The position numbers and the translations under genes were made by a program. The notes beneath the pieces were generated by a model. It was not told the DNA's origin. It searched no databases and saw only the letters and a list, made by a program, of their open reading frames with translations. DNA of 64,000 bases from Eudorina sp. 2006-703-Eu-15 (taxonomy: Eukaryota; Chlorophyta; Chlorophyceae; Chlamydomonadales; Volvocaceae), in contig BDSI01000014.1 of the NCBI GenBank assembly GCA_003117195.1, positions 925,001 to 989,000 of the forward strand, in the 5' to 3' direction. Positions 278 through 34,850 of the stretch are shown here, one piece after another; within the stretch, counting starts at the first letter, position 1; every line of letters starts with the position of its first letter.

Positions 278-558
278 CTTCCCTAATGCCGATTGGCCTG
301 ACGAGGTTTCGGCGGTCGCTTGCACACCGGCGACAACCCTGTCTTTCGTCATTGTGCCGTTGGAGCCCATAGGAACACAGTAGCCACCAAGACCGGCGAC
401 AGCGCTGTCCGGCGACGGGTCAATCAGCGCTGCCTCCAACAGCCCAACAACATAGCCAGGTGGACAGACTAACGACCCTTGCGCGGAGCTGCCGTACCAC
501 GGCGATATGTTTGAAGAGTCTCCGATGACTGGACTACACGTATCACAGACGGACGATC
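278..558 (-). CDS. Cys-rich exon, last one visible
   Basis: Acceptor CATCCCAG at 559, donor AAG|GTGAGT below 278, 94 codons in phase with the Pro-rich exon. It reads VCDTCSPVIG, LVCPPGYVVGLLEAAL, VAGLGGYCVP and so resembles the Cys module at 11.2-12.2 kb (CxxG..GL...LGxxC). It ends in phase 0 and the next exon is not obvious before position 1, so the gene continues outside the window. Confidence 0.72.

Positions 559-34850: not shown

What the first reader, a model, noticed from the sequence alone, without database searches (positions are those of the whole stretch)
278..34850. One giant surface protein combining SRCR, FG-GAP, GH18, C-type lectin and PAN domains
Seen: 47 exons join in frame in two blocks, from a signal peptide through SRCR x3, FG-GAP region, GH18, C-type lectins, PAN, Cys-rich modules and (Pro-rich + SRCR) x4. 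Known: SRCR and lectin proteins exist in volvocine algae and animals. I know of no described protein uniting these with an integrin-like propeller and a chitinase-like barrel. Inference: an extracellular multi-glycan and protein recognition receptor or matrix organiser, for example in mating, sex recognition, matrix assembly or defence.
Basis: partly seen in the sequence, partly recalled or inferred. Interest (0 to 1): 0.9.

Follow-up and report, generated by a model that had tools for sequence, protein, structure and literature searches.

The report
Giant algal lectin receptor with pseudo-chitinase
In the genome of a likely volvocine green alga, a predicted 49-exon gene joins scavenger-receptor, integrin-like propeller, chitinase-like and C-type-lectin domains into one protein that likely sits at the cell surface and would bind sugars without cutting them, because its chitinase-like part lacks the catalytic residue; the same unusual order recurs in database proteins of the green alga Edaphochlamys debaryana.

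Summary
On the minus strand, 49 exons (34850 to 278) splice in frame without a stop into 2,924 aa: signal peptide, SRCR x3, FG-GAP region, GH18, C-type lectin x2, weak PAN-like module, Cys-rich, (Pro-rich + SRCR) x4, Pro-rich, Cys-rich. Five Edaphochlamys debaryana database proteins match the FG-GAP-GH18-lectin core at 40-44% identity, four over 99-100% of it, so GH18 is not a separate gene. The window holds only the front: E. debaryana P0006 is collinear from window 32670 to 7.1 kb past the window edge, and a C. incerta protein continues the order from 18.4 to 48.8 kb past it. Homologues of that tail end in one hydrophobic helix, so I predict a membrane-anchored protein of roughly 8,000-9,000 aa (inferred; this gene's own tail was not read). 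The GH18 domain lacks the catalytic glutamate in 6 of 6 sequences (conserved DGxELxWPS): a predicted sugar-binding pseudoenzyme, like YKL-39. SRCR/lectin/Pro-rich surface proteins are known in this group; the GH18/FG-GAP fusion appears to be an undescribed variant. Transcript, ligand and function are untested.

The parts
34775..34850 (-). Exon 1: start codon and predicted signal peptide (MRLLSNLSTAAALLVLSIFALASAQ)
   Evidence: the only segment of the 2,924-aa model above the hydrophobicity threshold used; read as a signal peptide by eye, no dedicated predictor run
28905..34267 (-). Exons 2-10: SRCR domains 1-3 (aa 26-368)
   Evidence: Pfam SRCR 142.7 bits, 3 stretches; exons 3-10 aligned to 4 of 5 E. 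debaryana proteins, exon 2 to 3 of 5
22851..28433 (-). Exons 11-18: FG-GAP propeller-like region (aa 369-757)
   Evidence: Pfam FG-GAP_3 7.5e-9, FG-GAP 2.9e-6; part of the core matched at 40-44% identity in E. debaryana
19982..22608 (-). Exons 19-25: GH18 domain with DGAELDWPS instead of DGxDxDWE (predicted pseudoenzyme)
   Evidence: Pfam GH18 1e-36; catalytic Glu absent in 6 of 6 sequences
15941..19543 (-). Exons 26-29: C-type lectin domain 1 with QPDG...EDC...WYD; exon 29 also holds the start of lectin domain 2
   Evidence: Pfam Lectin_C 1.1e-22, 2 stretches; QPD kept in 4 of 4 E. debaryana proteins that cover it
14023..14966 (-). Exons 30-31: rest of C-type lectin domain 2, interrupted by a Pro-rich insert at the same place as in 4 of 5 E. 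debaryana proteins
12733..13267 (-). Exons 32-33: PAN-like module (weak)
   Evidence: PAN_1 E 0.095, MANEC 0.058, below cut-off; aligned to 5 of 5 E. debaryana proteins; P0006's precomputed domains include PF14295, a PAN family as I recall
10008..12156 (-). Exons 34-36: Cys-rich modules (CPxGTKAFGLRG); exon 36 fuses Cys-rich, Pro-rich and the start of SRCR4 in one open frame
   Evidence: sequence; Cys-rich part aligned in E. debaryana
2566..9357 (-). Exons 37-47: rest of SRCR4 to SRCR7 alternating with Pro-rich spacers
   Evidence: Pfam SRCR 96.7, 88.1, 83.6, 73.5 bits; SRCR4-7 are 61-83% identical to each other
1194..2130 (-). Exon 48: end of SRCR7 plus about 300 aa Pro-rich spacer
278..558 (-). 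Exon 49: Cys-rich module; the gene continues beyond the window edge
   Evidence: 40% identity to P0006 aa 2006-2112; P0006 continues collinearly beyond the edge

Best explanation
One gene is predicted to encode a giant, likely membrane-anchored surface protein of a volvocine-type green alga whose C-type-lectin and catalytically dead GH18 domains would bind sugars, whose SRCR and FG-GAP domains likely bind proteins or glycoproteins, and whose proline-rich spacers would hold these heads apart as stiff glycosylated rods. Shown by sequence and homology: the in-frame 49-exon front, its domain order, the same order in E. debaryana, the missing GH18 glutamate, and collinear homology past the window. 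Inferred: that everything downstream is the same transcript; that it ends, as its homologues do, in one transmembrane helix with a short basic tail; that the proline-rich parts are hydroxylated and glycosylated as in other volvocine wall proteins. Mechanism I commit to: a tether and sensor at the plasma membrane that grips the hydroxyproline-rich, galactose- and arabinose-bearing glycans of the cell's own wall or matrix (lectin domain 1 keeps the QPD signature that, from general knowledge, usually goes with galactose), with the pseudo-GH18 groove as a second, non-hydrolytic sugar site.
For: Gene model without stops, consensus splice sites. Pfam domains. E. debaryana homologues of the core: P0001 43%, P0002 42%, P0006 44%, P0007 44% over 99-100% of it, P0003 40% over 58%. 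P0006 collinear from window 32670 to 7.1 kb past the edge; C. incerta P0010 collinear from 18.4 to 48.8 kb past it. Tail homologues P0008-P0012 each have one hydrophobic segment, near the C-terminus. GH18 Glu lost in 6 of 6 with conserved DGxELxWPS; YKL-39, a chi-lectin (inactive, recalled), is among the best sequence matches with a solved structure. SRCR proteins of C. [quoted passage not shown]
Against: No transcript data. No single homologous model bridges 7.1-18.4 kb past the edge, so two genes remain possible there. The tail of this gene in this genome could not be read (server busy), so the membrane anchor is inferred from homologues only. No binding data; chi-lectins bind chitin-type sugars (recalled), which need not occur in the algal wall. 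Sixteen SRCR+lectin genes in E. debaryana against at most one in five relatives (PMC8226300, passage) is a pattern that also fits non-self recognition. The structure model that might have shown the folds failed.
Confidence: 0.55

Rival explanations
1. Recognition of non-self: the same membrane protein reads foreign polysaccharide, for instance chitin oligomers of fungi or bacterial surface sugars, as a pattern-recognition receptor.
For: GH18 domain resembles chitinases and chi-lectins. In E. debaryana the most expanded orthogroup has 16 SRCR+lectin genes against at most 1 in the other five species (PMC8226300, passage); the core of three E. debaryana copies is 48-54% identical to that of a fourth. 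127 SRCR matches in this genome, from 150 scored of 239 candidates.
Against: Lectin domain 1 keeps QPD, usually a galactose signature (recalled). No signalling domain is matched in the four tail homologues scanned, P0008-P0011. No expression data were at hand.
Confidence: 0.3
2. Soluble matrix organiser: the protein is secreted, not anchored, and cross-links wall or extracellular-matrix glycoproteins.
For: No further hydrophobic segment within the 2,924 aa read here; 17.6% proline.
Against: Five of five homologues of the collinear tail end in a hydrophobic helix followed by basic residues.
Confidence: 0.2
3. Several adjacent genes wrongly joined, within the window or downstream of it.
For: Uncurated gene finding cut the window part into 4. 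E. debaryana annotates the front (HYH03_015328) and the tail (HYH03_015331) as separate models, both with contig length 397,055.
Against: Inside the window: four E. debaryana proteins cover 99-100% of the core, exons 29 and 36 fuse neighbouring domains, short introns between domains. Outside: one predicted exon fuses, by eye, the end of a lectin domain with the start of an SRCR (SRCR matched), and P0006 stops in mid-lectin-domain while P0009 starts without a hydrophobic leader, as truncated models would.
Confidence: 0.25
4. The GH18 domain is a working chitinase and the rest of the protein targets it.
For: GH18 profile covered from 18 to 317 of 317; UniRef calls the E. debaryana proteins 'Chitinase'; a bacterial protein named Chitinase A1 (P0005) also lacks the Glu (DWRF), so the name and the loss can go together.
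Against: Catalytic glutamate missing (two-residue deletion after DW) in 6 of 6, while the mite chitinase P0004 keeps DGLDLDWE.
Confidence: 0.03
5. A decaying pseudogene.
For: Weak splice acceptors at two exons; tandem repeats in introns.
Against: 49 exons with no stop or frameshift; 40-44% identity kept across species in the core domains.
Confidence: 0.04

Closest known systems
Edaphochlamys debaryana HYH03_018741, 011721, 009840, 015328, 011482 (NCBI 'hypothetical protein', UniRef 'Chitinase')
   Same: Same core order FG-GAP, pseudo-GH18, C-type lectins (with the Pro-rich insert in lectin 2 in 4 of 5), PAN-like, Cys-rich; SRCRs in front in 4 of 5.
   Different: No (Pro-rich + SRCR) x4 block; four end in low-complexity tails and P0006 in mid-domain, so they look truncated. 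Not described in any paper that my searches found.
Chlamydomonas reinhardtii CHLRE_01g002861v5 and C. incerta HXX76_014794 (C-type lectin domain-containing)
   Same: 41% and 40% identity to the tail beyond the window; C-type lectin domains (1 and 6 Pfam stretches) and one C-terminal hydrophobic helix.
   Different: No SRCR, FG-GAP or GH18 match at E 0.1 in these models.
Mastigoneme protein MST3 of C. reinhardtii (PMC11015965, passages)
   Same: Giant (8,572 residues), signal peptide, poly(proline)-rich regions, five C-type lectin domains, membrane tether.
   Different: Ends in a PKD2-like domain; no such match in the four tail homologues scanned here; no GH18 is mentioned in the passages seen.
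YKL-39 / YKL-40 chi-lectins (GH18 without catalytic Glu)
   Same: GH18 domain that lost the catalytic glutamate; among the best sequence matches with solved structures.
   Different: Stand-alone animal proteins (recalled); in YKL-39 the Glu is exchanged, here two residues are missing at that place; here the barrel is one of many domains.

Membership tests
SRCR domain proteins (Pfam PF00530) | SRCR profile above curated cut-off with paired cysteines | tested here: met
   7 domains in the window; 6 Cys in 6 of 7 domains, 4 in SRCR2
Active GH18 chitinases | DxxDxDxE motif with catalytic Glu | tested here: not met
   DGAELDWPS here, DGxELxWPS in 5 of 5 homologues; of two other GH18 hits, P0004 has DGLDLDWE and P0005 DGIEFDWRF
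GH18 chi-lectins (pseudoenzymes) | GH18 domain without the catalytic Glu | tested here: met
GH18 chi-lectins (pseudoenzymes) | Demonstrated sugar binding | not testable with these tools
   needs recombinant protein
C-type lectins (PF00059) | Lectin_C profile above cut-off and a Ca/sugar motif | tested here: met
   81.3 bits, 2 stretches; QPD...WYD in domain 1 by eye; domain 2 lacks QPD
Integrin alpha chains | FG-GAP propeller | tested here: inconclusive
   FG-GAP families above cut-off but blade number unknown; structure model failed (mean pLDDT 39.4)
Integrin alpha chains | Integrin legs and GFFKR tail | not tested
   no integrin leg family among the Pfam matches of the pieces scanned; own tail not read
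E. debaryana expanded SRCR/C-type-lectin orthogroup (Craig et al. 2021) | Membership of that orthogroup | not testable with these tools
MST3-like PKD2-related giants | C-terminal PKD2-like domain | tested here: inconclusive
   no such Pfam match in tail homologues P0008-P0011; this gene's own tail not read

The most novel reading that the evidence does not exclude
A single transcript of a gene of more than 83 kb makes an 8,000-9,000-residue single-pass receptor, a polycystin-sized lectin tower that unites seven SRCRs in front and about seven behind, an FG-GAP propeller, about a dozen C-type lectins and a conserved dead chitinase, used as an algal sensor of chitin or wall glycan: a class of receptor not described in any organism.
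Probability: 0.35. Interest if true: 0.85.

Novelty: new variant of a known kind. Interest (0 to 1): 0.62.

Why it matters
Volvocine algae carry animal-type recognition domains whose roles are open. A conserved pseudo-chitinase built into a giant lectin and SRCR protein gives a concrete, testable candidate for how these algae sense their own wall or foreign polysaccharide, and suggests that chi-lectin-like loss of catalysis also happened in green algae.

Tried and rejected
Rejected: separate GH18 gene (five homologous multidomain models); active chitinase (Glu missing); end of the gene at 278 (P0006 bridges the edge). Three tiny exons of my 52-exon version (30, 35 and 15 nt) were dropped because at most one homologous residue falls in them; one donor was moved to a GC site to keep the frame that the homologues show; one acceptor (exon 46) was moved by 6 nt. 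Structure prediction of the E. debaryana P0007 FG-GAP+GH18 stretch with 4 aligned sequences gave mean pLDDT 39.4 and was not used. GH18 paralogues in the window's own genome could not be counted. BLASTP listed only two stretches for P0006, although searches show it matching through the core; I rely on those. The MAFFT alignment is not meaningful over the Pro-rich and SRCR4-7 part.

Full report
What is there. The window is G000:C14:925001-989000 of an unnamed 181-Mb genome. Stop-to-stop frames of the minus strand and a home-made splice-aware gene finder were used to draft a model, which was then curated by hand and corrected against homologues. The result is 49 exons from 34850 to 278, 8,772 nt, 2,924 aa, no stop; 48 of 48 acceptors AG; donors 44 GT and 4 GC; introns 138-1,911 nt, median 438. 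The splice and codon models were trained partly on this same gene, so the site scores are not independent evidence; the homologues are.

Domains. Ten typed pieces of the 52-exon version were scanned with Pfam: SRCR x3 (142.7 bits), FG-GAP_3 7.5e-9 and FG-GAP 2.9e-6, GH18 1e-36, Lectin_C 1.1e-22 in two stretches, and four more SRCR (96.7, 88.1, 83.6, 73.5 bits). The PAN call stays weak (0.095). SRCR4-7 are 61-83% identical to each other and only 26-39% to SRCR1-3, so they look like a local amplification of an SRCR + Pro-rich unit, placed where P0006 has a plain Pro-rich linker.

Is it one gene? Two protein searches of 5.8 billion sequences with the core found 7 distinct proteins (5 rows, 3, one shared): five from E. 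debaryana, and two GH18 chitinases whose best alignment covers 24% of the query. Four of the five E. debaryana proteins cover 99-100% of the core at 42-44% identity; P0003 covers 58% at 40%. Only the about 8,000 candidates sharing most words were scored in each search, and candidate lengths were limited, so absence from Chlamydomonas, Volvox and Gonium is not shown. In the alignment with my 52-exon version, every exon from 1 to 39 except the three later dropped has residues aligned to at least one of the five; these are exons 1-36 of the final model. Exons 37-48 have no reliable counterpart there; exon 49 matches P0006. The E. debaryana genes were annotated with RNA-seq and BRAKER (PMC8226300, passage), which supports but does not prove each join.

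Beyond the window. A run of N borders the window edge. P0006 places its residues 2009-2085 on exon 49, 2291-2353 just beyond the N run, and 2415-2560 at 6.0-7.1 kb past the edge, in order. Five typed pieces further on carry ten Lectin_C stretches and one SRCR; two more pieces give a CarboxypepD_reg and an FG-GAP match, both below cut-off. Seven SRCR matches lie on this contig beyond the edge. The third protein search, with the tail, returned 5 proteins, all from Chlamydomonas species or E. debaryana. C. incerta P0010 is collinear from 18.4 to 48.8 kb past the edge, with this genome's SRCR block lying where P0010 has no SRCR match. P0008-P0012 have one hydrophobic segment each, near the C-terminus. 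No single model bridges 7.1 to 18.4 kb past the edge; a relaxed search of P0010's first 420 residues against that stretch gave six matches to lectin-type exons in no consistent order. From 34850 to the last matched exon is about 84 kb. A length of about 8,000-9,000 aa is my sum over this model and homologues, not a reading.

GH18. In 6 of 6 sequences the motif reads DG-x-E-L-x-W-P-S; aligned with the mite chitinase P0004 (DGLDLDWE) the glutamate and the next residue are missing. The other GH18 hit, P0005, named Chitinase A1, reads DGIEFDWRF and also lacks it, so the loss is not unique to this family. The Trp of the last strand is kept in 4 of 6; that it lines the sugar site is recalled. By sequence the best solved-structure matches are chitinase 5gzu and YKL-39 (4p8u, 4ay1), followed by another chitinase, chitotriosidase and YKL-40 (60 of 111 rows shown). 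Sugar binding without cleavage is therefore the prediction.

How it most likely works. See best explanation. What is shown ends at architecture and the lost residue; anchor, hydroxyproline glycosylation, ligands and sensing are inferred from relatives: SRCR proteins with lectin and putative hydroxyproline-rich domains in C. reinhardtii (PMC6704257, passage), SRCR genes rising with wall genes in a mutant (PMC8895990, passages), and MST3 (PMC11015965, passages). Non-self recognition is the main rival because of the E. debaryana expansion.

Known or new. Searches of open-licence papers for SRCR with lectins in algae, FG-GAP with SRCR and glycosyl hydrolase (0 papers), Cre01.g002861 (0 papers) and chitinase-like with SRCR found no description of this union. 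I saw passages of PMC8226300, PMC11015965, PMC8895990, PMC6704257, PMC10291315 and PMC6123790; of the others only the listing. Subscription papers are not held; Wheeler et al. 2008, cited in PMC8226300, was not held. I file it as a new variant of volvocine SRCR/lectin/Pro-rich surface proteins.

Noticed in passing
17749-18367: An 8-base satellite (CGGACACA, 77.6 copies, 99% match) fills part of the intron that splits C-type lectin domain 1.
   Followed up: no
13442-13715: A 116-base tandem duplication (1.8 copies) with ATATATACAC repeats runs in the intron between lectin domain 2 and the PAN-like exons.
   Followed up: no
42259-45880: Plus-strand Pro-rich repeat frame ((SPPGQPPPP)n) and, further on, a frame with a likely transmembrane helix; possible neighbouring wall protein; no Pfam match above cut-off in the two pieces scanned.
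   Followed up: partly
50773-51872 and 62358-63453: Inverted copies 99% alike (arms 701 and 398 nt) about 10-11 kb apart, likely a mobile element.
   Followed up: partly
genome G000 (loci L001-L008, L016-L019): SRCR domains are abundant: 127 matches from 150 scored of 239 candidates, in clusters on several contigs.
   Followed up: partly
P0012 (C. schloesseri HYH02_014272): Database name 'Exocyst complex component' sits on a model that also holds the lectin-receptor tail: a likely fused gene model.
   Followed up: no
P0001, P0002, P0003, P0007: By eye, the Ser/Thr/Ala/Pro-rich ends of these E. debaryana models look like Pro-rich exons read in a wrong frame, so the database proteins are probably truncated.
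   Followed up: no
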